This document shows, in pieces, positions 3,552-64,000 of a DNA stretch of 64,000 nucleotides. The position numbers and the translations under genes are program-made. The first letter of the stretch is position 1, and each line of letters begins with the position of its first letter. The DNA is from Craterostigma plantagineum (taxonomy: Eukaryota; Streptophyta; Magnoliopsida; Lamiales; Linderniaceae), in NCBI GenBank assembly GCA_027422505.1, contig JAPQWV010000735.1, positions 1 to 64,000 on the forward strand, given 5' to 3'. The notes beneath the pieces are model-generated. The model worked only from the letters and a program-made list of their open reading frames with translations, was not told the origin of the DNA and did not search any database.

Positions 3552-6500
3552 TGTGACGACCCGCCATCTACTACTATTTTCTTACGCTAACTTACGTGAC
3601 TAAATAAAATATAAAATATATTACATAGGAAACATCGATAGAATTTTTTCGATTTTACAAAGCACACCACACCCAACTATTTTACAATACAAACATTGTT
3701 CAGATTTTACATACAATATAAACGTATTTTACAAAAACACACATAATTAAACATAACGCCCGCCGCACAGGTCGCATCCATGTACACACCACCCTCAAAA
3801 GTCACCGGAAGTTCCAGAAGGACCAGCCTCGTCATCTAAACATTTACGTACCGGATTCGCTACGTCTACAACACATAAAAACATGGGATGAGCTATAAAG
3901 CTCAGTAAGTGGAAATATGCATGTATGCACATGCCAAAATAGCAAAGGCATCCGCGCCAGTGCTTTCTAATACTATCCTCACATCATACTCATTCGTTTC
4001 TCATTTTCATCAGGGTCCATAGCTACTTACTAACCGCACCATCATATCATGAGCTCAAATCCTCTTCGGATAAAAATACGATAGTGGCCCACACTGGCTA
4101 GGATAAAATTAGGGTTTATCTCCAATCTTATCATTTACCAGGTCGCCCCTCTATCAAATTACTTTCCTGGCACTATAGTTATACTACGTGCCTTCCCAAT
4201 ACCTAAATAATTTAGGTAAATATACTCGACGGTTTTACCCCCGTCATGGTGCCTTTGTAGAAGTAGCTATATTCTCATCTATTTCCATTACATATAATTC
4301 GCTTTCCACTCGAGTAACATAATGCACGCTCATTCCTCAAAATACTCAATATGATTCGTGCGTGCACATGATCATGATGCATAAATAATGCAGCAATAAA
4401 TATTCCAAACAATCGCATATAACAGATAATTCACATACCATGTATTCATCGAAGCAATTAGTCATGTAGTAATACACATATCAATCAATTTATGTGTTGC
4501 AGGTGAAATTCCCACTTACCTGATATCCTTAGCTTATCGTACGGTTAAATCGCTAACCTTCAAACCCTAATTATAGAAACATATAAAATTAGAGGTTGTT
4601 AATTTAATTATAATTTCATAAAATTAGCTTAATTTGAAAACCCTAATTTCGACTTTTATAAATTTCGAAACCCTAAAATTTATAACTCGACCTAAATTGG
4701 GAAATACCATTTCAGAGATAGATCTCTACATTATACATAAATCTCGATATCATTAATAAAATAAATGTCGATATATATATGTACAAAGGTTCGACATCTT
4801 ACTCGAGATTACCATTTAAAATTCATATAACTCAAAAGCACTTCGAAATCCTCGCATCATACAACCACCTCGAGATTTCATGTCGAAATCTTTGTAAATG
4901 TCGAAATCACTTGACATCAACATCTCGACATTTATATATATAAGGATCTCAATATTCATTGTTTGGATAGATATCGACATTTTCAGAATAACACTCGACA
5001 TTTCATATAAGGTCTCGACATTTCTAAAAAACTCGAAGCAATATATGTCGATACCCCACAACAAAATGTCGATATCCCATGTATTATAAATGTCGAAACA
5101 ACTCACACCATATATCGACATTTTAATTTTTCTACTCGATATTCTCATTCGACTTTATCAACTTCAAATGACCCAAGTCGATATATATATATATATATAT
5201 ATATCCATCGAGATTATAACTTCTCAAAACATGTCGACATTTACTTAAGATCCCACCTCAAACAACAATAACATGTCGACATTTAAAAAATTCTAAAGAC
5301 ACATATCGACATCTTGTCTCAAACTCCCACACAAAAATCTCGAAACAATCCCACACACACATGTCGACATTTCTTTCGAATTCCTACTCGATATCTTCAA
5401 GACAAATATCAAGATCCCACACAACAAATATCGAACTCCTCTTATACAAGCACTCGACATCTTCTTCGAAATTCCACTCGATATCTTCAACTACACAAAA
5501 TACCTAACACTCATGTCGACATCTTATTTCACTCAAGATCCCATGTTATATCATAACTCGAGATTTCCACTTCTCAAAAATGTCGACATCTTCTATACTA
5601 TTCCACTTATCATAATATATCGACATCTTCATTTAATTCAACATTCACAACTACACCAACACTCGACATTAAACAAACCCTACTCTTCCCAAATTATAAA
5701 CACTATTTCTTCCTAAACTCTCAAATCTTTCGATCAAAACCTTATCTATCAAGAACACCTTAAATATCATATTCACTTTAAATGGTGTTCATTCTTTTCA
5801 AAACTCAAAACCCTAAAGAACATAAACTTACGTGATTTTCAAGCTTAATAACTCTTAGATAAACCAAAACCTAATTAAAAATATAAAGATTATAGTAAGA
5901 ACTCTTACCAAATTCCAAATTGCGTTATGAATGATTATGAGTTGTATTCTTCGCCTTCTCTCAAACTTATTCTTTTCGCCTAATAACTTCTTTCTTTCCG
6001 TATTGTTATCATAAAGTTTCCAATTATTGTTATTATTTAAGTCTTAAATTACTTTAGGTTTTGTCTTTAGCTTTTGAAATTTGGATTCATCCTCCCATCA
6101 TTATCGTGTATTGACTTCTAAAGAATAATAATCCTTACCTAATACCATCACAAACCAATTATTAGTATTTTATTCCTTGTATTAATTATTCTTTATAATA
6201 AAACCTCATGATCTATCCTAAAAATCTCGAATCCACTTCCACCAAAAGTCGAGCTATGTTTGTAAAAATTTCAAGATATATATCTATATAAGATGTCGAT
6301 ATATATTACATTGTAGAGAAGATGTCGATATATATATATATATATATATATATAATGTCGAATTAAGCTTCTAACTTCCTAAGGATTTCGAAAATATTTC
6401 CATACAAAAATCCTTATAGATATCGACATCACCTCATATCACATCTCGACATTCTATTTCATTGTCATCTCGACATCTTTCCATAAAGAAACCCTAAATT

Positions 6501-6698
6501 TCTTAATTATCACCTTTCGAAATTATTTTACTCACACAACCTAGTTTCAAAATTCCTCAAACTCAATATCTAATTTCCAAATAATGTTAGATATCATGTA
6601 GTCACGAAATTAAATAAATACAAGATATAAAATCATATAAACACATAATATGCATGCAAATTTATTGGCCAACTTACGCACGGGACCCGGGTATTACA
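3552..6698 (-). repeat. 3' LTR of the Tekay-type element
   Basis: 3,147 bp. On the minus strand it runs TGTAATACCCGGG to GGTCGTCACA. It contains dozens of copies of tcgacat/atgtcga words (4750-5660 and 6290-6480) and TA microsatellites near 5181-5203 and 6329-6354. Short open frames inside are translations of these repeats, not genes. Confidence 0.93.
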
Positions 6699-6710
6699 TT
6701 CTCCCCCCTT
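6699..6710 (-). promoter_or_regulatory. polypurine tract of the Tekay-type element
   Basis: Reads AAGGGGGGAGAA on the minus strand, directly abutting the TGTAATACC start of the 3' LTR. It is the expected plus-strand primer for reverse transcription. Confidence 0.9.
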
Positions 6711-6732
6711 AAAGAGGATTTCGCCCTCGAAA

Positions 6733-6996
6733 TCAGATTGGTTGAAACAATTCTGGGTACCGACTTGTCATATCATCTTCACGTTCCCACGTAGCTTCTT
6801 CAGTTGACTGCCATAACACTTTTACCAACGAAATCTCTTTATTTCGAAGTCTCTTCACTTCATGCATCAAAATCTCCACCGGCTTCTCTTCATAACTTAA
6901 ATCTGGCTTAAGCTGTTGATATAGAAATTCATTTCTCAAGACATGATTCGGGGTCAGCGACATATTTTCGCAATGTCGATACATGGAAAACATCAT
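6733..6996 (-). pseudogene. Tekay-type pol C-terminus with chromodomain, out of frame with integrase
   Basis: C-terminal end of the polyprotein. The stretch RLRNKEISLVKVLW followed by EEATWEREDDM and YPELF is the chromodomain of Tekay/Del elements, which in relatives targets integration to heterochromatin through histone marks. The upstream part of this frame overlaps the end of the integrase frame. A small frameshift near 6945 separates the two just after the KYVADP block. Confidence 0.85.
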
Positions 6997-7711
6997 GAAC
7001 TTGTGCCAATGAGGATGGTAGTTCCAGTTGATAAGCTACTTCACCGACTCTTTTAATTATTCTAAAAGGTCCAATGTATCTTGGACTCGATTTACCCTTT
7101 CGCCCAAACCGTTTCACGCCTTTCATCGGAGATACTTTGATAAATACCCAGTCATCTATTTCAAATTCCAACGGTCTGCGTCTTTGGTCTGCATAACTCT
7201 TTTGTAGACTTTGAGCCGTTTGCATTCTTTCTCGTATTTTTGCGATTGCCTCAGTCATCTCTTGAACCATGTCAGGTCCCAACATCGCACGTTCACCAAC
7301 TTCATCCCAATGTATGGGAGATCGACATTTGCGTCCATACAAGGCTTCATACGGTGCCATCCCAATAGTTGCATGATAACTATTATTATAAGAAAACTCG
7401 ATTAGTGGCAAATATTTGCTCCAGTTTCCTTTAAAATCCAAAACACATGCTCGTAACATGTCTTCCAAAGTCTGGATAGTTCGTTCTGACTGCCCATCAG
7501 TCTGAGGATGATAAGCCGTACTGAAAGACAACTTAGTCCCCATTGCTTTCTGCAGACTCTTCCAAAAGTTTGATAAGAATCGCGAATCTCGATCCGAAAT
7601 AATTGATAATGGAATCCCGTGGAGTCGAACAATTTCTTGTATATATATTTCTGCATATCGCTCCAGGGAAAACATCGAGCTTATGGGTAGAAAATGAGCA
7701 GACTTAGTCAA
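6929..7711 (-). pseudogene. Tekay-type integrase catalytic core
   Basis: Continues the frame of the preceding RT/RNase H segment after a TGA in place of an expected Arg codon (CGA to TGA fits C-to-T). The integrase core shows IISDRDSRF (second catalytic Asp), YHPQTDGQSERT (Glu), and GMAPYEALYGRKCRSP further on. It then runs through the GPF.I..RVGEVAYQLELP C-terminal module typical of Ty3-gypsy before losing frame near 6945. Confidence 0.9.
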
Positions 7712-9130
7712 TCAATCGACTATAACCCAAATAGCATCATAACCTTTTACAGTCTTTGGTAGGCCAACAACGAAATCCATAGTAATATGATCCCACTTCC
7801 ACTCAGGTATTGGCAAAGGCTGTAATGTCCCTGCTGGTCTTTGATGTTCCGCCTTTATTTGTTGGCAAGTTAGACATTGACTTATAAATGTCGCAATGTC
7901 TCTTTTCATCCCCGGCCACCAATAATTTATTCGAAGGTCTCGATACATTTTTGTAGCTCCTGGATGTACTGAATATGCCGTCGCATGTGCTTCTGCCATT
8001 ACTATTCTTCGAATCTCCGCATCATCAGGTACGTATAAACGGTCCTTGTAATATAGACTTCCATCTTCTTGTATTTTGAAATCAGTTGAAGTTTGATTCG
8101 TCTGTTCGTCTTTGATTTTCAGATATAACTCATCATTTTCTTGCACCCGTTTGATTTGTTCCAGTATCGTAGGTTGTAGAGTTAATGCTGCCAACTTTGC
8201 TTCGACTTCTCCCAATTGCACTACCTCCACTTCCAATAATTGTAACTCCGCGCTTACCGCTTTTCGACTTAATGCATCAGCCACCACATTTGCTTTGCCT
8301 GGATGATAACTAATTACACAATCATAGTCCTTAACAAGTTCTAACCACCGTCTTTGCCTCATATTTAATTCCTTCTGAGTGAAGAAATACTTCAGACTCT
8401 TGTGATCCGTGAAAATTTCGCATCGTTCCCCATATAAGTAATGCCTCCAAATTTTTAGAGCAAAAACCACAGCAGCTAACTCCAAATCATGAGTCGGATA
8501 ATTCTTTTCATACTCCTTCAATTGCCGAGAGGCATATGCAATTACTTTTCCATGTTGCATCAATATACATCCCAGACCATTTCGTGACGCATCGCTATAA
8601 ACTGAAAATCCTCCAGTCCCTGATGGTATTGTAAGAACTGGAGCTGAAGTGAGTCTCTTCTTTAATTCTTGAAAACTTTGCTCGCACTCCTCACTCCAAT
8701 GAAATGGAACATTCTTCCTTGTTAACTTAGTCAGTGTTGATGCAATCTTTGAAAAGTCCTTAATAAACTTTCTGTAGTATCCAGCTAAGCCAAGAAAACT
8801 CCGTACTTCTGTCACATTGGTTGGTTGAGGCCAATTGTTGATAGCTTCAATTTTGCTAGGATCCACAGAAATTCCTTCTCCAGAAACAATGTGGCCCAAA
8901 AATGCGACTTGACTCAACCAGAACTCACATTTCTTGAACTTGGCATATAATTTATTTTCTCGTAATATCTCAAGAACTATCCTCAAATGTTGCTCATGTT
9001 CTTCCTTCGTCTTCGAGTAAATAAGAATGTCATCAATGAACACAATGACAAACTTGTCCAAAAATTGTTTGAACACTCGATTCATTAGATCCATAAATGC
9101 CGCTGGCGCATTAGTTACCCCGAAAGGCAT
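7712..9130 (-). pseudogene. Tekay-type RT C-terminal half, RNase H and integrase N-terminus
   Basis: 472 open codons. It begins at [12 protein letters not shown] and carries the RT active site FIDD (residues ~31-34), the connection domain, RNase H blocks FSVYSDAS and [10 protein letters not shown], and the LSRKA region. The integrase HHCC zinc domain follows ([12 protein letters not shown] then CLTCQQ), then MDFVVGLP with the first catalytic Asp. It is separated from the upstream RT half by a one-base loss near 9140. Confidence 0.92.
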
Positions 9131-9132
9131 AA

Positions 9133-10341
9133 CTAAAATTCGTAGTGTCCATATCTGGTCCTGAACGCCGTCTTCGGAATGTCTTCTTTTCGAACCTTCA
9201 ATTGATGATATCCCGATCGTAAATCTATTTTTGAAAATACCGTTGCACCTTGTAGTTGATCAAATAAATCATCAATTCTGGGTAATGGATATTTATTCTT
9301 GATTGTTATCTTGTTCAGCTCTCTGTAGTCAATGCATAGTCGCATCGACCCATCCTTCTTTCGCACGAACAGAACTGGCGCTCCCCAAGGAGAAAAACTG
9401 GGTTGGATAAATCCCTTCTGTAACAGATCGTCCAACTGTTCTCTTAACTCTTTTAATTCAGTTAGCGCTAACCGATAGGGAGTCTTAGAGATTGGAGCAG
9501 ATCCCGGAATTAAGTCAATTGTAAATTCAATTTCTCGATCTGGTGGTAATCCTGGTAAATCTTCAGGAAATACGTCAAGAAAATCACACACCACTGACAC
9601 ATCCTCTAATTTCGGAGATGAACGTTCCTCTGATTTCACTGCGAAGACTAGATAAACTTCGCATCCCGCCTTAATTAGACGTTGTGCTTTTGTCGCTGAA
9701 ATTCTAAAAACATTTCTTTCTTTGTTTGTTCCCACAAAAATAGAAGACTCATTCTCTTCTGTTTTAAATGTAACTGTCTTGCGATTGCAGTCAATAACAG
9801 CTCCATATTTCGAGAGCCAATCCATTCCAAGAATCACCTCATAGTCGTTCATTGGAATAACTATTAAATCAACGGACAATTCTCTTCCATTAATTAACAC
9901 CGGAGAATTCCGTAATATCAGATTGGTTCGCATCGCAACTCCGTGTGGAACAGTCACATTATATTCACAATCAGATAGGGTAGGTGTAATCCCGAGTCTC
10001 GTCACATATTTAGTGGATGCAAATGAATGCGTAGCTCCTGAATCTACTAAAATGCATGTCGGAAGTTTGTGAATAAGTATAATACCTGCCACCACAGACG
10101 GATTAGCTTTTGCTTCCCCCGCAGTCAAAGTATACACGCGTGCTGGCACCGTTGGTGGTTTCGTTTGAGCCATAGCTTGATTTCCTAGTGTTTTATCTGA
10201 ACATGATCTTGCGTAATGCCCTGTCTTTCCGCATTTGTAACAGATAGCATTTTGTGAAAAACAGATACCCGAATGATGTCGTCCACATCTTGGGCAAGCT
10301 GGCATTGAAACTGGGGGTCTCCATTGATTAGGATTTTGTTG
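9133..10341 (-). pseudogene. Tekay-type zinc knuckles, protease and RT N-terminal half
   Basis: Carries [12 protein letters not shown] and the CCHC knuckle [14 protein letters not shown], then protease [11 protein letters not shown] (active Asp near residue 88). RT blocks [25 protein letters not shown] and [12 protein letters not shown] follow. The upstream TAG at 10339-10341 separates it from gag in the same frame and fits a CAG-to-TAG change. The frame is lost at the RT block ending in YGHYEF. Confidence 0.92.
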
Positions 10342-11193
10342 CTAAGGTGGTCCAGGCCTATTCTGAAAATTTGGCTTCCCACCTTTTAGAAAGAACTGTC
10401 GTTTCTGATTACCCCCACTCCACTTTGCTCCTTGCACAAACTTTCGCTTTGCCTCTTGAGCACGAATAATTCTTGTCTCAGCTTGTTCTGCAACCATCGC
10501 CCGCTCAGCTACTTGAGCATATGAGGCTCCTTGTAGTCCGGCCATATTAACGTCACGATACAACTCCGGCTTTAGACCTTCAAGGAATCGTTCAACCTTC
10601 AGAGCATCAGTACTCACCATGTGTGTGGCGAACCTTGACAGTTGTTCAAATTTTCTGATATATTCCGCCACAGTCATCGCCCCTTGTTTGAGATTTATAA
10701 ACTCATTCAGGCGTTGGGCTCGCACAGGTGCAGTGAAGTATTTATTTCGGAACAGTTCCTTGAAACGTTCCCAACTCATGTTGATTGGATCCTCGATCGC
10801 CAAAATAGTGTCCCACCAATGCCCTGCACTTCCTCGCAGTAGAAATGCAGCACACAGAACTTTCTCATTCTCAGGAATTCTGCTATATTGAAACATACTC
10901 TCTAATTTTCTGAGCCAATCTTCAGCAGATGTTGGATCAATAGCATCCTCAAAAATCGGTGGATTCAGTTTACGAAATCTTTCACCCACTGCTTCAACCC
11001 TATCAAACTGAGAGATTCCGTTGTTTCTTGTCCCCTCAGAGTTTTGCTGCTGAATCAATTCCCGAATCTGTTGAGACTGCTGACGTACCAATTCAGTAAG
11101 CTGAAGGATAGCCGAATCACGATTGTCAGTCGGGTTTACATTTTCGCCTTCATGATTGTTACCTCCACTGCCTTCTCCTCTAGTTCTAACCAT
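10342..11193 (-). pseudogene. Tekay-type gag
   Basis: 283 codons from an ATG at 11193, about 145 bp downstream of the primer site. It contains the retrotransposon gag capsid fold with FLLRGSAGHWWDT, MSWERFKELFRNKYF and MTVAEYIRKFEQLSRF, and a glutamine-rich coiled N-terminus. It ends at a TAG that most simply derives from CAG, because the zinc knuckles continue in the same frame. A related, much more decayed gag lies at 59789-60500. Confidence 0.9.
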
Positions 11194-11337
11194 GTTGTCT
11201 CTCTTACCCTATCAGTCCCTAAGGCCAATAAATTATACAATGCAAGAAATTCATAATATCACATAACTTACAAGCCAGGCTGTCTTCCGCGCTTTTGAGT
11301 GTGTGTACATGGACAGTCTACAGAAACTGCAACCGAA

Positions 11338-11349
11338 GCTCTGATACCA
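11338..11349 (-). promoter_or_regulatory. primer binding site, initiator tRNA-Met
   Basis: Reads TGGTATCAGAGC on the minus strand, complementary to the 3' end of tRNA-iMet, three bases inside the 5' LTR boundary. The 11194-11337 leader shows nothing else. Confidence 0.92.
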
Positions 11350-11352
11350 ACC

Positions 11353-14128
11353 TGTGACGACCCGCCATCTACTACTATTTTCTTACGCTAACTTACGTGA
11401 CTAAATAAAATATAAAATATATTACATAGGAAACATCGATAGAATTTTTTCGATTTTACAAAGCACACCACACCCAACTATTTTACAATACAAACATTTT
11501 TCAGATTTTACATACAATATAAACGTATTTTACAAAAACACACATAATTAAACATAACGCCCGCCGCACAGGTCGCATCCATGTACACACCACCCTCAAA
11601 AGTCACCGGAAGTTCCAGAAGGACCAGCCTCGTCATCTAAACATTTACGTACCGGATTCGCTACGTCTACAACACATAAAAACATGGGATGAGCTATAAA
11701 GCTCAGTAAGTGGAAATATGCATGTATGCACGTGCCAAAATAGCAAAGGCATCCACGCCAGTGCTTTCTAATACTATCCTCACATCATACTCATTCGTTT
11801 CTCATTTTCATCAGGGTCCATAGCTACTTACTAACCGCACCATCATATCATGAGCTCAAATCCTCTTCGGATAAAAATACGATAGTGGCCCACACTGGCT
11901 AGGATAAAATTAGGGTTTATCTCCAATCTTATCATTTACCAGGTCGCCCCTCTATCAAATTACTTTCCTGGCACTATAGTTATACTACGTGCCTTCCCAA
12001 TACCTAAATAATTTAGGTAAATATACTCGACGGTTTTACCCCCGTCATGGTGCCTTTGTAGAAGTAGCTATATTCTCATCTATTTCCATTACATATAATT
12101 CGCTTTCCACTCGAGTAATATAATGCACGCTCATTCCTCAAAATACTCAATATGATTCGTGCGTGCACATGATCATGATGCATAAATAATGCAGCAATAA
12201 ATATTCCAAACAATCGCATATAACAGATAATTCACATACCATGTATTCATCGAAGCAATTAGTCATGTAGTAATACACATATCAATCAATTTATGTGTTG
12301 CAGGTGAAATTCCCACTTACCTGATATCCTTAGCTTATCGTACGGTTAAATCGCTAACCTTCAAACCCTAATTATAGAAACATATAAAATTAGAGGTTGT
12401 TAATTTAATTATAATTTCATAAAATTAGCTTAATTTGAAAAACCTAATTTCGACTTTTATAAATTTCGAAACCCTAAAATTTATAACTCGACCTAAATTG
12501 GGAAATACCATTTCAGAGATAGATCTCTACATTATACATAAATCTCGATATCATTAATAAAATAAATGTCGATATATATATGTACAAAGGTTCGACATCT
12601 TACTCGAGATTACCATTTGAAATTCATATAACTCAAAAGCACTTCGAAATCCTCGCATCATACAACCACCTCGAGATTTCATGTCGAAATCTTTGTAAAT
12701 GTCGAAATCACTTGACATCAACATCTCGACATTTATATATATAAGGATCTCAATATTCATTGTTTGGATAGGTATCGACATTTTCAGAATAACACTCGAC
12801 ATTTCATATAAGGTCTCGACATTTCTAAAAAACTCGAAGCAATATATGTCGATACCCCACAACAAAATGTCGATATCCCATGTATTATAAATGTCGAAAC
12901 AACTCACACCATATATCGACATTTTAATTTTTCTAATCGATATTCTCATTCGACTTTATCAACTTCAAATGACCCAAGTCGATATTTATATATATATATA
13001 TATATATCCATCGAGATTATAACTTCTCAAAACATGTCGACATTTACTTAAGATCCCACCTCAAACAACAATAACATGTCGACATTTAAAAAATTCTAAA
13101 GACACATATCGACATCTTGTCTCAAACTCCCACACAAAAATCTCGAAACAATCCCACACACACATGTCGACATTTCTTTCGAATTCCTACTCGATATCTT
13201 CAAGACAAATATCAAGATCCCACACAACAAATATCGAACTCCTCTTATACAAGCCCTCGACATCTTCTTCGAAATTCCACTCGATATCTTCAACTACACA
13301 AAATACCTAACACTCATGTCGACATCTTATTTCACTCAAGATCCCATGTTATATCATAACTCGAGATTTCCACTTCTCAAAAATGTCGACATCTTCTATA
13401 CTATTCCACTTATCATGATATATCGACATCTTCATTTAATTCAACATTCACAACTACACCAGCACTCGACATTAAACAAACCCTACTCTTCCCAAATTAT
13501 AAACACTATTTCTTCCTAAACTCTCAAAATCTTTCGATCAAAACCTTATCTATCAAGAACACCTTAAATATCATATTCACTTTAAATGGTGTTCATTCTT
13601 TTCAAAACTCAAAACCCTAAAGAACATAAACTTACGTGATTTTCAAGCTTAATAACTCTTAGATAAACCAAAACCTAATTAAAAATATAAAGATTATAGT
13701 AAGAACTCTTACCAAATTCCAAATTGCGTTATGAATGATTATGAGTTGTATTCTTCGCCTTCTCTCAAACTTATTCTTTTCGCCTAATAACTTCTTTCTT
13801 TCCGTATTGTTATCATAAAGTTTCCAATTATTGTTATTATTTAAGTCTTAAATTACTTTAGGTTTTGTCTTTAGCTTTTGAAATTTGGATTCATCCTCCC
13901 ATCATTATCGTGTATTGACTTCTAAAGAATAATAATCCTTACCTAATACCATCACAAACCAATTATTAGTATTTTATTCCTTGTATTAATTATTCTTTAT
14001 AATAAAACCTCATGATCTATCCTAAAAATCTCGAATCCACTTCCACCAAAAGTCGAGCTATGTTTGTAAAAATTTCAAGATATATATCTATATAAGATGT
14101 CGATATATATTACATTGTAGAGAAGATG

Positions 14129-14162
<34 letters not shown>

Positions 14163-14504
14163 GTCGAATTAAGCTTCTAACTTCCTAAGGATTTCGAAAA
14201 TATTTCCATACAAAAATCCTTGTAGATATCGACATCACCTCATATCACATCTCGACATTCTATTTCATTGTCATCTCGACATCTTTCCATAAAGAAACCC
14301 TAAATTTCTTAATTATCACCTTTCGAAATTATTTTACTCACACAACCTAGTTTCAAAATTCCTCAAACTCAATATCTAATTTCCAAATAATGTTAGATAT
14401 CATGTAGTCACGAAATTAAATAAATACTAGATATAAAATCATATAAACACATAATATGCATGCAAATTTATTGGCCAACTTACGCACGGGACCCGGGTAT
14501 TACA
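11353..14504 (-). repeat. 5' LTR of the Tekay-type element
   Basis: 3,152 bp, nearly identical to 3552-6698, with the same tcgacat-rich zones and TA runs (about 12984-13008 and 14132-14160). Its right 2,334 bp (from 12171) are part of the tandem duplication and recur at 19074-21398. Confidence 0.93.
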
Positions 14505-21398: not shown

Positions 21399-21613
21399 CC
21401 TTGTGACGGCCGAAAAAACATTTCGGTCATCCTCTGAGGTGACCGAAATATTTGGTCGGCCGTGGCTGTCCCAGCCGAATTTGTTGTCCGACTGGGTACA
21501 GTTTCGGCCGAAATCAGATTTCGGCTCACTTGGAGGTGGCCGAAATCTATTTTCGGTTGCCTCTTAGAAGGGTCGAAATACTGTTTCGGCTCGGGTTAAA
21601 TTTTTTTTTCCAG

Positions 21614-53433: not shown

Positions 53434-53929
53434 CTGTTACGAATATTTTAGAAGTCTCCAAAATATTTAGTCTAACTAGTTTATTTCTTTGTATTGTGGA
53501 TTGTAGGTTGTAATGGGCCAAGTTAGGGCCCAATGGGTTTAATACCTAATTCAAGCTATTAAACCCTAATCCCTAAAACTTTGAAATCTAAGTTTCCATT
53601 TCTAATATCCTTACACACGTCAAACTCTCTAAGCGTCAAACACTGTTCATCATCTTCTTAAGGCTTTAATCATTTGCCAGTATTAAAGTGTTCTTGGATA
53701 ATCTGGAACATATAAGTGGCTTCAAGCAAGCGTGGGTGAGGAAACTTCATTTCAAACAACATTGAATCGATTTCATGAGTTCTCTTTCAGATGAGCTTTC
53801 GAAGAACATAACAAATACCCATTTTCAGGCTGCTTTCCTTAGTTTTCTGGGTCATTCAAGCTTACACTTAGGAGTTCTATCATTATGAGAATTTCCGAGG
53901 CAGTTTCTACTGTTTTTGACTGTGATCTT

Positions 53930-54540
53930 TCTGGAAAACTTTGTTTTGCGAGTCAAGAACTGCTTGCCGTTCTAAGTTCGTGAACTACACTTCCTTAGGG
54001 TTTGATTCACGGGCTGTTAAGTCGGTTTATGCGAATCCCTGATTTCACATCTCAGTTTCGCGAATTAGGTTCACGAGTTATCAAGGTTTGCGGTTCAGCT
54101 AAAGAAGTAGAGTTTCGCGAGTTGAAAGTTCACAAGCCTTTAGAAATTCAAAACTCAAAATCAACGCTCAATTTTGCGAACCACATTTTACGAGACAGGT
54201 CTGCGGGTTGAGTTCCGCGAACAAGCTTTTAAGGAGAAGAGTTTCGCGAATCAGGGAGAAGAAGCAGAATTTCACGAGTCCAGACTTTTTCGAGAACCCA
54301 GTTTATTTCGAATTGAAATCCCAGGCCAATTCGCGATCCGAACGTTTCGCGAATCCAAGTTCTCATACAAATTCGTGAAATTAAAACTTATACTAGTTCG
54401 TGAACACTGAACGAATTCGCGAACCACGGCTCAATTTGTCGGCAAAGTCAAATTCCAATCCACGAATCAAATTCTTTACCCAATTCGTGAAGCCAACTTT
54501 CAAATTCCAAAGTCAAATCCCAAAACTCAATTTTGACTCA
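53930..54540. repeat. dispersed TTCGCGAA/TTCGTGAA words in the SIRE-type 5' region
   Basis: At least ten exact or one-off copies of the 8-bp palindrome ttcgcgaa or variants such as ttcgtgaa and ttcacgag in 600 bp. They have no fixed spacing. Open frames here are repeat translations. Confidence 0.7.
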
Positions 54541-54605
54541 AAATCTTCGATTCAAAATTTTGTTTTCCTCATATCACACGTCGACGCTCACATCCAAAAC
54601 ACAAA

Positions 54606-54720
54606 AATGGTCAGCTTAGGCATGGGAAATGATCTAAGACCTCCCGTCACCAGACATGACGAGTACGTCGTCTGGAAGAGAAGGTTCGTCAACTTCTGTA
54701 GACCTTTTTGGTCCAAATGA
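54606..54720 (+). pseudogene. Copia gag N-terminus fragment
   Basis: Encodes LGMGNDLRPPVTRHDEYVVW and KRRFVNFC, the opening motif of SIRE-type gag, then stops. A second version of the opening (YSLGNDNRPPILKRG) lies at about 55747, 1.1 kb on, so either a duplication or an insertion separates them. Confidence 0.6.
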
Positions 54721-55740
54721 TTATGAGAGTTTTGATTATTCCAAGTAATTATGTATTATGGGGGGGGGGGGTACAATTTAGAACACTTGATATGTATGAT
54801 TTATGATGTTTAAGTGTGTAAAATTATTCGATTAAGTGTTTAAATGTGATCAAATTGTTAAGATAATTGAATTTGTGTGATCTTGTGATTAACTGGAATA
54901 TTGCTGTGATCACCTAGTTATGAACGTTTCGTATGAATGGAATCTCACTGCGTGCTATATATGGAAAATATATCATGTTGACTGACATGTGAACTGTCTG
55001 CGAGATTGAGTTATTTTAGGAAAGAATATCGCTGTGATCACCCATATATGAATGACTGTATGTTATATATGGAAAAGATATTCTGATTGAGCTGAAAACG
55101 TCATTGAGTTATATTCTGTGATTTTTGCGATAATTTCAATTTTCTCGCTAGGTTCTTCGATCAGATTAATTTCTCGATCGAAAACTCGGCGCCAAAATTT
55201 TTCTCGATCAGAATACAAAGTCCGATATAAAGTCGTCTTTATCAAGAACGACTATAGTAGAAAAATTTCTCGAGCATTACTAAGCGAAAAACTTTTTCGA
55301 CGAAGACCAATTTTGACCTTTGCGCGCGTAAAACGTTCCGCTGAAAAACTTTTTCGGTCAGACTTTCCGAGTTTGACTAAGCGAAAATCACTTGCGTCCG
55401 AGAAACTTTTTCAGTCAACGAATTTATTTTGACTTAGTGAGAAACTTACTAAACGTACTGTTTCTTTGCGATCGAAATAAATTCACGATTAAGAGATTTT
55501 TCTCGACCGAAAGATTTCGAACATATTTTTCGCTCGTAAAGTTTTTCGATGAAAAAAAATAATTTCTCGCACGAGAACAGTAATCAATGCACTTTATTTC
55601 GACACAACCGTAAAGATTGAATCGAAAATAATTCTCGACTACTTTAGAATCAAACTATTTTGAAGCACATAACATCAGTCCATACTATCAAACATAACAT
55701 ACTACAAACGACGATCCTTCATCAACTCAACAAATAAAAG
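54721..55740. other. insert between two gag openings, with repeat words
   Basis: A 12-base G-run at 54760-54771 is followed by a ~125-bp-spaced duplication (gctgtgatcacc ... tatatatggaaaa near 54903 and 55031). From 55110 to 55640 there are many ttctcgatcgaaaa-type words. No gene motif. Confidence 0.55.
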
Positions 55741-55741
55741 T

Positions 55742-57090
55742 GGATGCCTACTCACTTGGAAATGACAATCGTCCTCCGATACTCAAGAGAGGCAAAAAAC
55801 AGTCTGGAGAAGCCGATTTCTAGATTTATCGAGCTAAAAGATCAAGCAGATGACCTTCTCAGTTCACTTGAGCAAGGCCCAGCTCAGTTCGGGATAAATG
55901 TGCCTGGTGACAACATCGCTAATCCTCCGATCCCTGCCTATAGACGACTTAAAGAGCCTAGAGAGTACACAGTAGAGGAAAGAGTGAGAGCAAGGCTAAT
56001 CTAATAGCGAAGAACACCTTAATGCAGGGCATCCCAAATGACATCTATTGACAAATAGACAACATCCCACAGCTAAGGGAATATGGGATGAGCGCATAAG
56101 ATGATGCAACGAACAGAAGTCGGCATCAAGGCCAAAAAGGCAAATATTCTCACGGCCTATGATTCCTTTAGAGCTAAACCGAGGAGTGCTTACATGATCT
56201 TTACCGAAGATATCTCACCCTCCCAAATGAGATGAGGAAAATTGAAATCACGAAGACGAACATGGAAGAAGATATTCGCTCAAATCCGACAAAATAAAAA
56301 CCTTGAGGAGCCGGACAATCTCGCACAGCACGAGGAAGATATTAGCGAGATTCAGAAGGAGCAGAAGGGCAAACTTGTCGACGACTCAGTTGCCCTAGTC
56401 TCGGAGAAGAGAGGCTCAAAACCACAAAAAGAAAAGACCATTAAGCCTCCTAACCCTCAGAGTCTGGAGATGATACAGATTCAGACATGGAGCCTAACAT
56501 GAGAGTGCTGGAAAAACAGTTGGCTTGGAAGATGATGAGCAAACAATACTTCAAAAAGAAGTCCTCATCATCATCCAATCGACTTCGGACCTCAAGCTCT
56601 AGGAACGAAGAACATGTACCTGCGACTTCAGAAGTTAAAGCCTCCAAAGAACCGACCAAGTGCTTTAACTGCGGGAAATATGGTCATTACGCTAGAGAAT
56701 GTACTCTTCCAGAGAAGAGAGACGCTAACTACTACTCCGAGAAGCTTCAACTCACGAAGCAGAAGGAAGCTGGTGTAGCTTTAATGGAAGAACAAGACCA
56801 CTGGCTTGAGGACACCTCAGAAGAGGATAACTTAGCCCTAATGGCCCGCCTGGAGGAGCATTCTGATGTCGAAACCTCATAACAGATGGACGGAGACCAA
56901 GCATCCGAACCTTCTGAGGAGGTAGTTTCTCCTTCCACATTATTGACCATGTTAGAATCGTATCAATTAGCATACACTAACATGAAACGTGAGCGGAAAA
57001 GCATAAAGGAAGTAGAAAAGAAACTAGCTAAGTCTCAGGAGAAAATTCTAGTCTCGAATCAGAACTTAGAAGCTCTAGTTCAAAAATAGA
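55742..57090 (+). pseudogene. SIRE-type Copia gag
   Basis: Frame changes several times. Readable blocks are YRRLKEPREYTVEERVRA, MQGIPNDIY and MRVLEKQLAWKMMSKQYFKKK. The CCHC knuckle CFNCGKYGHYAREC is at 56661-56702, followed by an acidic SEEDNLALMARLE stretch and a coiled KSIKEVEKKLAKSQEK segment typical of SIRE gag. It carries stops and frame changes. Confidence 0.8.
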
Positions 57091-58740
57091 AGAACTTACT
57101 AAGAGCCTACATTCTGGAGAGACTACAAAACCTCAAATAGAGTAGCATGATTCAAGAGTTAAAGAATTAGAAGACAGGCTAGAAAAAAAAACTACAATTG
57201 CTTAGTTAGAAATCTCAATGATAAAGCTAACCTCAATTGTAGGTTAACAGAAGCGACTACTAAGATCACCAACCTAGAAGCCGAATTAGATAAATCTAAT
57301 ACTGAGGGAACTTAGGAAAGATCTGGATGCCTGTGAAGCCGCCAAATTGACGGTAGAAAATAACTTTGCTCAATTAGGAGAAGAGCGTAAAAAGTTATCC
57401 GCTAAAATTAAAAAATTAGATGATCTTATAGTAAAGAAGGGACAATCTGAACAAACTATATTTTTTTTGGGCAGCCCAAGGACTTAGAGTTTTATAATTA
57501 TAAGTATGGCTTAGGTTTTGAAAATCTGTGTCATTTGAACAAAGTTGACTGTAAACAACTCTACGATGTCAAACACATGTGTCTCGGACTAACCTCTATC
57601 ATGGCTTTCACTGGGGAAAAGGAAACTTATGAATTAGAAGAAGCCAAGAGAAAAGCCAAAACCAAAGCTGAAATTCCCTTTTCTATGACGAACTGAATCA
57701 AAGCAACGACACCGGGGAATCTTCCCAAGGGTTGGAGCCTTGAATCAGTTCAAATTTCTGAAGATCCTTCTAAAAATAAGGAAGCTCAAATTCATCATTC
57801 TGAAAATTCTCTCTATATACTCCATATTATTAGAAAAATAGAAGGGTAAGAGTTTCTTTAGAAAAAGAAAGAAGAAGTTTGAAGTTGAAAAGGAAAAATT
57901 CCTAAAAGAGATGGAAAATCTCAAAGCTTCCTCCATCCCACAAGCAATTTCTCACGCATCTCCCTCAACCGAAAATATCATTTTGAAAAGCGTGAAGAAA
58001 GAAAAAACCCCTCAAAAGATCTGAAAAATAAGAATAATACTTTAAAAAAAAATCCTATCTAATAATTAGGTTTCGCTTACGTCTACATGGAGAATAGGGC
58101 GAGCATTAGAGTTGAAGGCGGGAGTGTCTAGTTTAAAAATAGAGAAGGAGCCCGTAGACTTGAACGCATTTAAGAAAATCTCATTCTGTACAAATAAAAG
58201 ACACTCATAGAAATAAAAGAGGTTTCTTCTGTTCAAATAATTACTTCGACATGTTCACTTCAGCTACCACCTTTAGAAGCACCAATTTCGAAACAGGCTC
58301 TACTTCAGTTATAAAAAATAATCATTCTAAGAAAAATGCCTCTAGGAAGACCCGTAAGAACAAGATCCAGCCATAAAGAAAGCATATGGCGCTATTCATG
58401 CTTGTTCTCACCTAGGTATCCCGTTAAGATCGAATCCCCAAAGCACCTTAGGTGACTATCCAATGAAAAGATCTTTTCCACACCCAAGCCTACTAAAGCA
58501 TTTGTCCGAGCTGAAATTAATTTTTCCTGGAAGGTTCAACCTAAATGGGTTCCTAAATCACCGCCTAAAAAGACGAAAGCCAAAATGGCCTTGCCGTATA
58601 CAAAGGACAAACCCAACTCAACTTCTTTGCGAGTAACTTGGGTTGTTAAAGCTCCTGCTAACAATAGTTTAGGAGCCATATCCAAACCTAAGATGAAATC
58701 TGCTAATCTGAGAGGACCCATCTTTAAGTGGGTAGATCCA
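57091..58740 (+). pseudogene. SIRE-type gag/pol linker remnant
   Basis: Lys/Glu-rich coiled-coil-like frames, much interrupted. The segment DLEFYNYKYGLGFENLCHLNK near 57478 occurs in SIRE-like gag extensions from memory. Basic, low-complexity reading continues to the protease. Nothing else is recognised. Confidence 0.5.
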
Positions 58741-58742
58741 TC

Positions 58743-59190
58743 ATGTGTGGTACCATGACTCTGGTTGCTCCACACACATGACGGGAATAAAAGAGCTGCC
58801 GAGCAACTATAAAGACCGACCAAATGGAAAAGTTAGATTCGGGAACAACGACTCAACCCCCATTCTAGGACTTGGGGACGTGATTCTAGAAAATCTAACA
58901 ATCAAGCATGTCTCTTACGTCGAAGGTCTCCGCCAGGTGGTCTTTCATGCTGATCGGTGCAGAATTTGGACAGTCAGAACAAACAACTCTTCTAAGGACT
59001 TCGGAAATCCAATCTTTACACGATTAATCTAACGTCCGTGCGGACCACGACTGCTGTTTGCCTCATCTCTCAAACCACAATTCAGAGGAACGGCTTATGG
59101 CATCAACGTATGGCTTATCTAAACATCAAAGCTCTTCAACGACTATCAATAAAAAAGTTGGTTCAACGACTCTTCAATGTATGCCCGACG
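58743..59190 (+). pseudogene. Copia protease end and GAG-pre-integrase
   Basis: HDSGCSTHMTG carries the D-S-G protease active site, followed by GKVRFGNNDSTPILGLGDV and IKHVSYVEGLRQ. After a frame change the GAG-pre-integrase block LWHQRMAYLNIKALQRL is read near 59092-59180. Sequence then becomes unrelated, so integrase and RT are missing. Confidence 0.8.
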
Positions 59191-59337
59191 CCGATGAGGG
59201 CGGGGAGTCATCGCCGGTGCTAGAGAGGTGCACGGACAAGGACCAGCTCCTGACAGGCTTCTAGGCGAAGGGGTACCATGAACGACCAGATCTGACACCA
59301 GAATGAGAGGGATCCTGAGACTAGCAACGTATGGGCG
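59191..59337. other. junction sequence, unassigned
   Basis: GC-richer sequence between the truncated Copia pol and the 5S-bearing LTR. I do not recognise it. Confidence 0.4.
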
Positions 59338-59642
59338 TGTCATGCTAAGAACCGTATAAGAAAATTTATAGTACTACTCATATCACCAAGGTCGACCTAC
59401 CTTTTCGGGAGTCCATCTATAAGAACTCCGAAGTTAAGCGTGCTTGACTTGGAGCAATCTAGGGATGGGTGACCCCCTGGGAAGATTGCCCAGGGTAGTG
59501 TGAGCGAGGACGAAGCACGCTGAAAGGTTAAATGGTGGTACAGTGGGGCCAGACTATCAGTCGGAGTGTGGTGGGCGCAACTCCACTTGCCTCGATAGGG
59601 ACCGATGCTACAGTGACACTCGGTCTGGGACGGGATGTTACA
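59338..59642 (+). repeat. 5S-bearing LTR (Cassandra-like)
   Basis: Ends GGGATGTTACA at 59642, two bases before a tRNA-iMet primer site, so this is the 3' edge of a 5' LTR. The proposed start TGTCATGC at 59338 gives 305 bp, within the size known for Cassandra TRIM LTRs; the start is uncertain. It contains the 5S-like block at 59410-59484. Confidence 0.72.
59410..59484 (+). other. 5S rRNA-like sequence with Pol III internal promoter elements
   Basis: Matches plant 5S rRNA through agaactccgaagttaagcg and tgcttg (A-box zone) and ggatgggtgacc.cctgggaa (C-box), with a divergent middle. Both 5S ends are missing or altered, so it is not a functional rRNA gene. Cassandra TRIM elements are known to carry exactly this domain in their LTRs. 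Confidence 0.85.
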
Positions 59643-59644
59643 GG

Positions 59645-59656
59645 TGGTATCAGAGC
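59645..59656 (+). promoter_or_regulatory. primer binding site, initiator tRNA-Met
   Basis: TGGTATCAGAGC, two bases after the LTR end. Confidence 0.92.
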
Positions 59657-59788
59657 CTGGGCTTTAGATTCTAAAGACTGTCCATGTACTGCCGCTCAGA
59701 AGCCGGGAGAACCAGGCTTGCCTATAAGTATTACGTGTTTCGGTGTGGCTTTGTGATCTGATATGTGCTCATTTATGTGTAATAGCTA

Positions 59789-60500
59789 GCATTCGGGAAT
59801 GTCGAGTGTTAGACCAAGACGCAAATTTGTATGAGAATCAAGTCGGCGGAACGAACCTGAGTCCCGACTCGTGAACGTGATACCATCCATCGTTTGACTG
59901 AACTGATCCAGCGTTAGTCAGACCAAATCAACGACCTGATCAATCACCGGAGCTCATCTGAGCGCCGATCTTCCCGCAGCCTGATCGTGTTGAAATTATT
60001 GGGGAGAGATTCTGCAAACTTAATCCCCCAACCTTCGCCGACGTCGCTCCCTGTAGTGGCTGAGGATTGGATCGGCACAATAGAAGATCTCTTAGTCTAT
60101 AGTCGGGTGCCGAATAATGAGTAGGCGTTGCGTGCCGTTTCCCTGCTTCGGGGAAGCGCGCGTTTCTGGTGGAACACCGTAAAGTGTTAGCGGATCCCGC
60201 TACTATGACGTGGGAACGCTTCAGGGAACTCTTTTACGACAAGTACTTTACTACTCATGATCAGGAGCAGCGAATGTACGAATTTATGAACCTGAAGTAA
60301 GGTCGTATGCTAGTTGCGGAATATATCCGCAGATTCGAGGAGTTATCACGTTTTGCTCCTCATCTCGTAGCGACGAATACGCTGCAGGTTACGAGGTTTC
60401 TACGGGGACTGAAACTCGAATTCTATCGAGATCTAAGTGTGGCGGGTGTACGACAGCTAGACTTTCGCCAAGCGACTGAACGAGCATTGATAGCGCAGTA
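59789..60500 (+). pseudogene. chromovirus-type gag remnant behind the 5S-bearing LTR
   Basis: About 130 bp after the primer site. Readable blocks, in order: LTELIQR.SDQINDLI, IIGERFCKLNPPTF, EDLLVYSRVPNNE, LLRGSARFWWNTV, MTWERFRELFYDKYF and VAEYIRRFEELSRFAPHLV, then RFLRGLKLEFYRDLSVAG. All align with the intact-looking Tekay gag at 10342-11193. Stops and small indels occur throughout. It ends at about 60500 without zinc knuckle or pol. Confidence 0.85.
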
Positions 60501-60540
60501 GGCGAAAGAGTAGTAGGGAGGGCCCAGGAAGTAGACTTGC

Positions 60541-60572
60541 CCAACCGCCGGTTAACCGTAACCGGCGGTTGG
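60541..60572. repeat. perfect 14-bp hairpin at a segment junction
   Basis: ccaaccgccggtta and taaccggcggttgg pair perfectly around a 4-base loop, 16 bp before the start of the third segment copy. It is flanked by further ggcggtta words. Confidence 0.85.
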
Positions 60573-60587
60573 CGGTTAGTCCATTGG

Positions 60588-63500
60588 AAATTCTCTGACG
60601 GTCCAGAAGCTTCTAGAATATCTCCAATGAAGTGTTTTTTTACATGTATATGTGTATATTTGTTGGGTAAAATGTTACTCACTTAAAACGTTTTAGTCTC
60701 AGAGAAAGCTTAATTCTCTCAATTCACAGTTATCGACTTACTTTTTTCTTTTAATATTAAGACTCGTTTGATTCGATTTTATCTTATTCAGTCGCTTTTA
60801 CCTTGTTCGGCCGTTGAAGTCGATATTGAATTGGTTTCTAAACGAAATTTTGATTTGGGGGTGGAAGCACGAATTCACTCGATACATAAAAAAATGTGTC
60901 TTTATTAGTAAGACCCATCTGAAATTGAGGACGAAAAAACTTTATTCAGTCACAAACGCTAAGATTATGCAGTTTTCATCTGTTTTTAGTGTCGTTTGTG
61001 ATTTCGTTTTATCCATTTCGATCCATTACTTGTATACAGAATGTGTTATTTACGACAAAGAAGGCGTTATTACCTTTCAGTGACGTGTTACTTCTAAGTC
61101 AACATTTGTTATTAACCTAAGACATTTGTTATTTTTGGCTATGTTATAAGTATTTCTTTTTACACGATTTAGAGAAAATATAATATCCGTTTCTTGCAAC
61201 TAATCGGTATAAATTCGAGGTACCCATGAGAAATTGAGGTCAATTTTACCTTATTGAGTCAATAACGCGGAGATTTATGCAGTTTTCATCTGGTTTTTAG
61301 TGTCGTTTATGATTTTCGTTTTATCCATTTCGATCCATTACTTGTATGCGGAATGTGTTATTTACGACAAAGAATGCGTTATTACCTTTCAGCGGCGTGT
61401 TACTTCTAAGTCAACATTTGTTATTAACCATAAGACATTTGTTATTTTTGGCTATGTTATAAGTATTTCTTTTTACACGATTTAGGGAAAATATAATATC
61501 CGTTTCTTGCAACTAATCGGTATAAATTCGAGGTACCCATGAGAAATGGAGGTCTATTTTACCTTATTGAGTCAATAACGTGGAGATTTATGCAGTTTTC
61601 ATCAGTTTTTAGTGTCGTTTGTGATTTTCGTTTTATTCATTTTCGATCCATTACTTGTATACACAATGTGTTATTTACGACACAAGGCGTTATTACCTTC
61701 AGCCGTGTGTTACTTCTAAGTCAACATTTGTTATTATCTATAATGCATTTGTTATTTTTGGCTATGTTATAAGTATTTCTTTTTACACGATTTAGGGAAA
61801 ATATAATATCCGTTTCTTGCAACTAATCGGTATAAATTCGAGGTACCCATGAGAAATGGAGGTCTATTTTACCTTATTGAGTCAATAACGCGGAGATTTA
61901 TGCAGTTTTCATCTGTTTTTTAGTGTCGTTTGTGATTTTCGTTTTATTCCTTTCGATCCATTACTTGTATACACAATGTGTTATTTACGACACACAAGGC
62001 GTTATTACCTTTCAGCGATGTGTTACTTCTAAGTCAACATTTGTTATTATCTAATGCATTTGTTTTTTTTTTTTGCTATATTCGTTATTTCTGACGATTA
62101 AAGCTGCAAAATTAGATATACAAATCATACCCACGATCAAATTAACAATAATTTCAACATATTAGGTCATAAACTTTGATATTTTCGGCTACAGTCGCAA
62201 CGATTTCTGTTATTTGTATATATCAGTTTTTTCTAGCTTCCATAAATCTTTTGAAGTTTTTTCAATCTCAACGATTTATGTTTATCATTTTCGGCTCCAT
62301 GTCAACGATTTCTGACGATTAAAGCTGCAAATTAGCAATACAAATCGAGCTTGAAGTTTTTTTAAGAGGATTCGAGCTTGCAGCGAAAATCGCTCGTTGG
62401 AGAAGACGCTGGCAAAGGCTTGTAAATTTCGCATCTGTTAGAGGGTATATATGTCATATCGCATAGTTTGGGTCTTTTTCTCTAAGAGTTTTGAAAAGTA
62501 GGTCCTTAATGCTAAATGAAACTTGATTGGGGTCTGAACACTACTTAAACATCTTAACGGGGCCTGACTGATAATTAACCCTTTCTTAATATGAGAGGGA
62601 AAGGCTTAGTCATCAACTTGTCCCATCACTCACAAATCCCTAAGCTCTAATCCTTATCATAACGATTGATCATCAAAAGAAAAACATAATAAGAAAGAAA
62701 ACTTTATTAAGCCTAGAAAAAAAGAAAACCCTTGTCACTTAACCACAAGAAAGAAGAGAGGACGAAAGGAACTGGCCAATTAAAGAATCATAGCATCTTA
62801 GTTTCGGATTCTTGATAAGAAAAACATTCCTTTGGCAACCTTTGTGACTTTCGTAATATATAGTGCTTAGCTGCTATATTTCGATAAATCAAGACACTAA
62901 TAGAAATTAGATGTACCCTAGACGGCAGATTTACTAGTTTAGATTATAAAGCATGTTAACATATTTATTTAGTCAAAGAATAACTCGGATGGCATAACAT
63001 ATCTTAAAGACTTATAACCCTAATATAGAACAAATGTTGGTTGAAGCTAGCGATTTTAGGGTTTGGGTGTAAACCATACCAAAATAGGTGCTTAGAAGTA
63101 TGTATTTTACGTTTGAGAATGTTAGTAAATTAGGGATTAAATTTTGGAGTAGAAGGCAGCTTCGAAGTGACTCTCGATCGAATGACAAAAGTTACATGAA
63201 CGACCGGGCGAATTGAAATGATGAGAAGATCGGGCGATTTGATGCTTCGATAGACTCTCGGCGAAACTGAGATGATGGAACGAAACAAATCGATCGAACG
63301 CAAAGTTTACAATGCATGGAATCGGGCGACTTTGTGGGGAATGAAGAGCACAACGAAACTGGGTTAAATGGAGTCGAATCGACTGATTTGTAGGGGTGTA
63401 AAAGTCTCGACGAAAGTGGAAATTCCATGCAAGGAATCAGGCGTTTCTAAAAGGAAATTGAAGCTCGGCAATTTTACTTCGAGCGATTTCAAAAGCCAGC

Positions 63501-64000
63501 CAATCGAATCACTTGATGATGGAAAAACTCGCCGATTTACACTTAGCATAAAATGTTCGATCGAAACTCGTTCCATAAGAGCCAATCGGGCGATTTCTTA
63601 CAATTGAAAGAAGACTCGTCGATTCTTGTATTGAGCCACATCACAGTCGATTGAAACTTAACCATATGTTATACCTAATCGATCGAAAGTAAACTTTTAG
63701 TGCAGGACAATCAGATGACGTAGAAGCCTACAAGAACCGGGCGAGGCTTAGATGTCTAATCTTGGACTTAGACTAGAAAGCGAGACTTAGGGCTTAGCAA
63801 ATTTACATAGCCGAATTAATTATTCTAACCTAGCTATTTAATTTAGACATGACCCTAAATTTATAATATTTTTTCTAAGGGTCAGAAGAAAGGAATTCAC
63901 AAGGCAGTAAGCTTATTTAGCACGGACGGCAGGTAAGTGAAAGTCCCAACTACTACAACATATAATTTACGTGCATGAATTATATGTCCGCTTCTATGAT
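60588..64000 (+). repeat. segmental duplication 2, partial third copy (unit C)
   Basis: Homologous to about 37541-40950 and 45905-49310 and runs off the window. At several sites it agrees with unit B against unit A (for example gattggggtctg, tagtgcttagc, cgctcgttgg), so B and C are closer to each other. Confidence 0.92.
60925..62077 (+). repeat. ~310-bp tandem repeat array in unit C
   Basis: Counterpart of 37868-39025; four units in the same order. The remainder of unit C is the left part of the Tekay-like LTR with its tcgggcgattt words and no gene. Confidence 0.88.

What the first reader, a model, noticed from the sequence alone, without database searches (positions are those of the whole stretch)
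59338..60500. A 5S rRNA-bearing, Cassandra-like LTR drives a coding chromovirus gag
The LTR carries a 5S-like block with A-box and C-box zones, ends TGTTACA, and is followed by a tRNA-iMet primer site, a ~130-bp leader and a Tekay-related gag, all on one strand with normal spacing. Cassandra elements are known as non-coding TRIMs whose protein donor is unresolved. A coding element with this LTR would be a candidate autonomous partner or progenitor. The alternative is an LTR swap or chance insertion; the correct order favours a real element.
Basis: partly seen in the sequence, partly recalled or inferred. Interest (0 to 1): 0.88.

Follow-up and report, generated by a model that had tools for sequence, protein, structure and literature searches.

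The report
Cassandra piece beside broken chromovirus gag
A stretch of plant chromosome holds a Cassandra-type mobile-element end, with its 5S-rRNA-like block, directly upstream of a broken gag gene of the chromovirus kind; it is most likely one old element inserted near the edge of another, rather than the long-sought helper that would move Cassandra.

Summary
The raw observation largely holds. The 5S-like block is real and fits the published Cassandra motif (box A 59432-59443, 18-base gap, box C 59462-59474, PBS 59645-59656), and a chromovirus-type leader and gag follow on the same strand. The coding-Cassandra reading is weak. The gag is broken, with no second LTR after it; a separate repeat starts at 60588. 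Cassandra-unit sequence continues left of the proposed LTR start (59184-59337); in five relatives the same block lies after the PBS, as Cassandra interior. The LTR carries about 57-87 more bases before the PBS than 11 measured relatives; three alignments place them at 59573-59629, others elsewhere. That stretch holds a second LTR-end-like motif, and homology to a neighbouring chromovirus begins at 59626. Of 22 relatives reading past the PBS, none matches the chromovirus leader. Best reading: a Cassandra fragment nested near the end of the 5' LTR of a decayed Tekay-type element. Main rival: a hybrid LTR from template switching. The decisive own-genome copy search was unanswered in 23 attempts.

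The parts
59011..59172 (+). Remnant of a Copia-type element (gag_pre-integrase domain), match ends in mid-domain; left border of the Cassandra-like piece
   Evidence: Pfam gag_pre-integrs E 4.3e-06, residues 6-59 of window:58996-59220, profile 1-51 of 67; 26.9 bits, under the cut-off of 28.4
59184..59337 (+). Cassandra-unit sequence left of the proposed LTR (3' part of the interior, or LTR start; border not resolved)
   Evidence: 9 of 95 LTR-relative proteins match 59150-59340 in antisense translation, best P0055 E 1.6e-10 over 59184-59288; in 5 of them the block lies past the PBS motif
59338..59612 (+). Cassandra-type LTR; start (59316 or 59338, TG by eye) and end (59572 to 59612) are inferred, not proven
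   Evidence: Antisense translation of 59338-59642 matches all 95 relatives, which were found with a query from it
59402..59405 (+). TTTT, about +20 relative to the inferred 5S-equivalent start (59383); would fit the Cassandra Pol III stop in a 3' LTR
   Evidence: Runs of four or more T in 59180-60600 start at 59402, 60232 and 60351 only; start point inferred from a recalled 5S in which box A begins at base 50
59418..59484 (+). 5S rRNA-like block
   Evidence: Score 70 against a shuffle maximum of 27
59432..59443 (+). Pol III box A
   Evidence: Published pattern RGTTAAGYRHGY
59462..59474 (+). Pol III box C
   Evidence: Published pattern RRRATRGGTRACY, 18 bases after box A
59573..59629 (+). 57-base block absent from relatives P0045, P0052 and P0054; other relatives place the extra bases elsewhere between about 59540 and 59636
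   Evidence: Frame-tolerant alignment of 16 chosen relatives; not a copy of the LTR sequence to its left
59604..59612 (+). GATGCTACA, possible true end of the Cassandra LTR
   Evidence: One mismatch to GATGTTACA; 17 of 5000 shuffles of the block do as well (176 of 5000 for the shorter TGTTACA); looked for after the fact
59634..59642 (+). GATGTTACA, LTR end next to the PBS, read here as the chromovirus LTR end
   Evidence: homology to the neighbouring element's LTR end and leader starts at 59626
59645..59656 (+). tRNA-iMet type primer-binding site TGGTATCAGAGC
59645..59760 (+). Chromovirus-type leader
   Evidence: 59631-59729 is 75% identical over 101 columns to the neighbour's leader, E 1.9e-10; 0 of 1000 shuffles reach the score
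59864..60507 (+). Broken gag (Retrotrans_gag)
   Evidence: tblastn with the neighbour's gag, E 2e-45, two frames with stops inside; Pfam Retrotrans_gag 9.1e-06 on the stop-free piece 60301-60498, no family on 60154-60297
60588..64000 (+). Separate repeat, 99.3% identical to 37541-40958 and 45908-49322; the gag piece ends before it
   Evidence: the 80 bases left of this copy differ from those left of the other two
3552..14504 (-). Neighbouring near-complete chromovirus used as yardstick: LTRs 3552-6698 and 11353-14504 (99.4% identical), PBS 11338-11348, gag, protease, RT, RNase H and integrase-end domains in several open frames, weak chromodomain match; no box A-box C pair

Best explanation
The block is most likely a fragment of a Cassandra element (part of its interior plus its 3' LTR) that inserted within the last few dozen bases of the 5' LTR of a now broken Tekay-type chromovirus, so the 5S-bearing LTR would not be the promoter of this gag. 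Shown: Cassandra-type sequence from about 59184 through the 5S promoter core; chromovirus-type sequence from 59626 on (LTR end, PBS, leader, broken gag); and between them more bases than the measured relatives have, with a second LTR-end-like motif at 59604-59612. Inferred: that the Cassandra LTR ended there, that the following GTGAC (59613-59617) would be its right-hand target duplication, and that the left half (5' LTR, left duplication, rest of the chromovirus LTR) was lost where Copia sequence now stands. How each would have worked: Cassandra is reported to be transcribed by Pol III from the 5S block and is thought to be copied by another element's reverse transcriptase; the chromovirus would have used its own Pol II promoter in the lost part of its LTR.
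For: Cassandra-unit homology continues left of 59338 (9 of 95 relatives, best E 1.6e-10), and in five of these (P0038, P0045, P0053, P0054, P0055) that block lies past the PBS motif, as expected for interior followed by a 3' LTR and not for the flank of a fresh 5' LTR. P0053 repeats the KMHLV point at 465 bases with a PBS between, a Cassandra-type tandem unit. The PBS-to-KMHLV distance is 258 here against 171-201 in 11 of 11 measured relatives. P0045, P0052 and P0054 jump from 59572 to 59630, and P0053 and P0057 set their LTR end (VTS) against 59564-59572. GATGCTACA at 59604: 17 of 5000 shuffles do as well. Chromovirus homology begins at 59626, inside the LTR end. None of 22 relatives reading at least 30 codons past a PBS motif matches the window's or the neighbour's leader and gag; the neighbour's antisense frames, as control, do match the window's at that threshold. 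P0035 and P0043 seem to show the same LTR end without a PBS, and P0060 shows it joined to an unrelated frame (by eye; no Pfam family in P0060 or P0043).
Against: No target duplication can be checked, since the left side is gone. Only 5 of the 16 relatives aligned put the end of the shared LTR at 59572; others, such as P0038, P0059 and P0069, align through part of 59573-59629 and leave the gap elsewhere. The bases right after 59572 do not look like a Cassandra end, so an end at 59612 needs an LTR about 30 bases longer than in the compared relatives. The second terminus was looked for after the fact. The window's PBS distance of 170 is within the published range (8 bases in ferns to 173 or more in Brassica, PMC7215508), and other hits (P0066, P0068, P0079, P0086, P0090) have PBS-to-5S distances of 180-192. 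The relatives are antisense reading frames of other plants' DNA, and the control frames were longer than most of the relatives' stretches.
Confidence: 0.55

Rival explanations
1. Hybrid LTR: reverse transcriptase in one particle switched between a chromovirus RNA and a co-packaged Cassandra RNA inside the last part of the LTR, both primed at the same tRNA-iMet site, giving a Cassandra-type LTR with a chromovirus end, leader and gag.
For: Both sides use the same PBS. The switch would fall in the part copied first, between the end of Cassandra homology and 59626. The LTR end at 59634-59642 is directly followed by the PBS.
Against: Does not by itself explain Cassandra-unit sequence left of the LTR at 59184-59337. 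Leaves the LTR-end-like motif at 59604 as chance. A single copy only.
Confidence: 0.2
2. One reading: a coding chromovirus family whose own LTR is Cassandra-like, the autonomous partner or progenitor of Cassandra.
For: Correct order and strand of LTR, PBS, leader and gag; the PBS distance is within the published Cassandra range.
Against: Broken gag, weak pol matches only, no second LTR in the window. Cassandra sequence left of the LTR start. 0 of 22 relatives join this LTR to a chromovirus leader. A Pol III transcript would meet TTTT at 60232 within gag; Kojima 2024 argues that a partner must use a Pol II promoter (passage).
Confidence: 0.13
3. DNA-level crossover between a Cassandra tandem array and a chromovirus at the shared PBS, with a small insertion or an LTR subfamily difference accounting for the extra bases.
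For: PBS and LTR-end motif are shared by both kinds; a tandem unit of this family exists (P0053) and Cassandra arrays are published (PMC7215508, passage); it would explain Cassandra interior on the left.
Against: The extra bases need a separate event; no array is seen in the window (one motif hit).
Confidence: 0.12

Closest known systems
Cassandra TRIM retrotransposons (PMC7215508: passages; PMC10853983: passages and sections 14, 19, 21)
   Same: Box A, 18-base gap and box C; iMet-type PBS within 200 bases; a 5S core of about 70 bases; tandem-unit relative
   Different: Chromovirus leader and gag follow the PBS; extra bases sit before the LTR end; a fragment without a pair of LTRs
Tekay-type chromoviruses (name recalled; yardstick is the near-complete element at 3552-14504)
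   Same: LTR end, PBS, leader and gag homology
   Different: The yardstick's LTR is about 3.15 kb and holds no box A-box C pair; this copy would keep only the last few dozen bases of its own LTR and has a broken gag
TRIMs with larger coding relatives (PMC4717578: passages)
   Same: A TRIM-type LTR beside coding sequence
   Different: There, 11 of 289 TRIM subfamilies had larger complete related elements; here one broken copy

Membership tests
Cassandra | RGTTAAGYRHGY[15-25]RRRATRGGTRACY[5-200]TGGTATCAGAGC | tested here: met
   One hit in the window, 59432-59656; pattern from PMC7215508
Cassandra | 5S block in both LTRs of a short element without coding sequence | tested here: inconclusive
   Only one LTR is present, cut off at the left at about 59172-59184; a coding remnant follows
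Cassandra | LTR of about 200-400 bases with the 5S block near its middle | tested here: inconclusive
   LTR borders not resolved; 59338-59612 would give 275 bases with the block near the middle (lengths, position)
Cassandra | Pol III transcription from the 5S block | not testable with these tools
   Boxes intact; no RNA data
Tekay-type chromovirus (gag piece) | Chromovirus-type gag and leader | tested here: met
   E 2e-45 to the neighbour's gag; leader 75% over 101 columns
Tekay-type chromovirus (gag piece) | Chromodomain at the integrase end | tested here: inconclusive
   The fragment ends in gag, so the region is absent; the neighbour has a weak Chromo match, E 0.006, 16.9 bits against a cut-off of 25.1
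Autonomous partner of Cassandra | Full-length copies with the same LTR on both sides of gag-pol | tested here: not met
   Not met at this locus; copies elsewhere in the genome not tested, the genome search unanswered in 23 tries

The most novel reading that the evidence does not exclude
The LTR is a true hybrid: Cassandra RNA and a Tekay-type chromovirus RNA were copied in the same particle, leaving a fossil joint that names Tekay-type chromoviruses as Cassandra's helper, perhaps with a coding family that shares its LTR.
Probability: 0.25. Interest if true: 0.82.

Novelty: new member of a known kind. Interest (0 to 1): 0.3.

Why it matters
Two papers, seen in passages, say that Cassandra's autonomous partner is unknown (PMC7215508; PMC10886601). 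A coding element with a Cassandra LTR would answer that. This locus most likely does not, but it gives a sharp test: whether the bases between the two LTR-end motifs belong to chromovirus LTRs of the same genome. A nested pair would be ordinary in a plant genome.

Tried and rejected
Separate insertion with its own target duplication between LTR end and gag: no room, since chromovirus homology runs through the LTR end, PBS and leader without a break. The possible insertion edge lies earlier, inside the LTR. A plain 5S gene: the Rfam score is below the gathering score. The 57-base block as a duplication of nearby LTR sequence: not supported (409, 651 and 778 of 1000 shuffles as good). Viral contigs for the 5S pair: 0 matches with two patterns; for the neighbour's gag: 3 stretches, none confirmed. 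Species genomes for the pair: 0; for the neighbour's RT-integrase piece: 22 stretches, none confirmed. These collections are viral and prokaryotic, so absence there says little. Paper searches: in the listings shown (20 of 38; 20 of 39; none found; 4 of 4; 20 of 22; 10 of 16) I saw no title or abstract start naming a coding element with a Cassandra LTR; most subscription papers are not held, and Maiwald 2021 could not be read.

Weak points: the relatives are antisense reading frames, 95 at E up to 10 among 540 candidates, 75 of them without a host name. 23 hold the core SKSSTLN, 25 a KMHLV-like point, 14 both, and 7 look like plain 5S genes. The 16 relatives were picked by me, and its gap costs favour long gaps. 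The PBS counts rest on text patterns that can miss members or take in others (28 of 95 with the pattern; 22 of 95 at 30 codons or more with the wider one). One relative, P0106, weakly matches the neighbour's LTR (E 0.007). After re-reading I lowered the nested reading from 0.57 to 0.55 and raised two rivals by 0.01 each.

Full report
What is there. The window reads as plant DNA rich in mobile elements: named relatives of the neighbouring element's gag are from Striga, Olea, Rehmannia, Andrographis, Paulownia and Ficus (that most of these are Lamiales is recalled). At 59418-59484 lies a block that aligns to a recalled plant 5S rRNA with score 70, against a maximum of 27 in 500 shuffles. The published Cassandra search pattern (PMC7215508, passage) hits the window once, at 59432-59656, with the published 18-base gap and the PBS 170 bases after box C. 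Box A and box C as a pair appear in 0 of 200 shuffled windows, one strand. Rfam scores the block at 21.3 bits, below the family's gathering score of 38, which would fit a core without the outer arms.

After the PBS. The bases from 59626 through the PBS and leader align to the LTR end and leader of a minus-strand element at 3552-14504 (0 of 1000 shuffles reach the score; 75% over 101 columns). That element has two LTRs of about 3.15 kb, 99.4% identical, and gag, protease, reverse transcriptase, RNase H and integrase-end domains spread over several open frames. It has a weak chromodomain match (E 0.006, below cut-off) and no box A-box C pair. The name Tekay is recalled. Its gag finds homology at 59864-60507 in two frames with stops between (E 2e-45); the stop-free piece 60301-60498 is Retrotrans_gag, while 60154-60297 alone gives no family. 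The neighbour's pol pieces find only weak matches in 52000-64000 (E 0.0004 to 0.72). From 60588 the DNA is a separate repeat with two further copies in the window.

Relatives of the LTR. Plant genomes could not be searched, so the antisense reading frame across the 5S block (59397-59663) was used as a protein query: 2 hits, then a three-sequence profile with 95 hits at E up to 10 among 540 candidates. 20 of the 95 carry a host name (Medicago, Lonicera, Dorcoceras, Diospyros, Solanum). 23 hold the LTR core SKSSTLN, 25 a KMHLV-like point, 14 both, and 7 look like plain 5S genes. P0053 repeats the KMHLV point at 465 bases with a PBS between, that is, a short Cassandra-type tandem unit.

What the relatives say. 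All 95 match the LTR stretch from which the query came; 9 of 95 match the stretch left of the proposed LTR start, best P0055 at E 1.6e-10 over 59184-59288; none match the leader and gag of the window or of the neighbour, and one (P0106, E 0.007) weakly matches the neighbour's LTR (small database, E up to 0.01). 22 of 95 read at least 30 codons past a PBS motif; as control, the neighbour's antisense frames match the window's leader and gag at the same threshold, though those frames are longer than most of the relatives' stretches. In five of the 22 (P0038, P0045, P0053, P0054, P0055) the stretch past the PBS holds the very block that lies left of the LTR in the window. So that block is Cassandra interior or the start of the next LTR, and it lies on the wrong side for a fresh 5' LTR of a chromovirus.

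The joint. Sixteen relatives, chosen by me, were aligned with frame changes and long gaps allowed. P0045, P0052 and P0054 put the LTR-end-plus-PBS codons at 59630-59656 and the next codon at 59572, so 57 bases (59573-59629) are extra here; P0053 and P0057 set their LTR end against 59564-59572. The other eleven leave the gap elsewhere or in patches, and P0038, P0059 and P0069 align through part of the block. Independent of alignment detail, the distance from PBS to KMHLV is 171-201 in 11 of 11 relatives in which both were found by pattern, and 258 here with points set by me: 57 to 87 extra bases. The block is not a copy of the LTR to its left. It holds GATGCTACA at 59604-59612, one mismatch from the LTR end GATGTTACA, matched as well in 17 of 5000 shuffles; this was looked for after the fact. 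The left border is a Copia remnant whose domain match ends at 59172.

Reading. The simplest account is one Cassandra element inserted close to the 3' end of a chromovirus 5' LTR, followed by loss of the left half. It explains Cassandra interior left of the LTR, two LTR-end motifs, and chromovirus sequence that starts before the PBS. It does not explain why the bases right after 59572 fail to look like the relatives' LTR end; with an end at 59612 the LTR would have to be about 30 bases longer in this plant. A template-switch hybrid explains the intact LTR end and PBS but not the Cassandra interior on the left. A DNA crossover in a Cassandra array explains the interior but not the extra bases.

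Mechanism. In Cassandra the 5S block gives a Pol III start, and the RNA ends in the 5S part of the 3' LTR (PMC10886601, passage). Here TTTT at 59402 lies about 20 bases after the inferred start point, and the next TTTT is at 60232, inside gag. A Pol III transcript from this LTR would therefore be predicted to stop within gag. That speaks against it as a driver of gag-pol, in line with Kojima's argument that partners need a Pol II promoter. None of this was tested on RNA.

Noticed in passing
3552-14504: A near-complete minus-strand chromovirus with about 3.15 kb LTRs 99.4% identical, which would point to a recent insertion; its coding part is open in several pieces split by stops or frame changes.
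   Followed up: partly
36032-52765 and 60588-64000: An 8.37-kb unit in tandem (36032-44405 and 44399-52765, 99.5% identical), with a further copy of part of it from 60588 to the window end; inside are repeats of about 310 bp.
   Followed up: partly
12164-19073 and 19068-25965: A second large tandem duplication of about 6.9 kb, 99.6% identical.
   Followed up: no
1915-2223 and 2536-2844: A 309-bp inverted repeat with 100% complementary arms, 312 bp apart.
   Followed up: no
29104-29211 (-): Rfam snoR71 match of 37.3 bits, just under its gathering score of 40.
   Followed up: no
60543-60570: A palindrome-like stretch (AACCGCCGGTTAACCGTAACCGGCGGTT) where the gag piece ends; by recall it resembles hAT transposon ends.
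   Followed up: no
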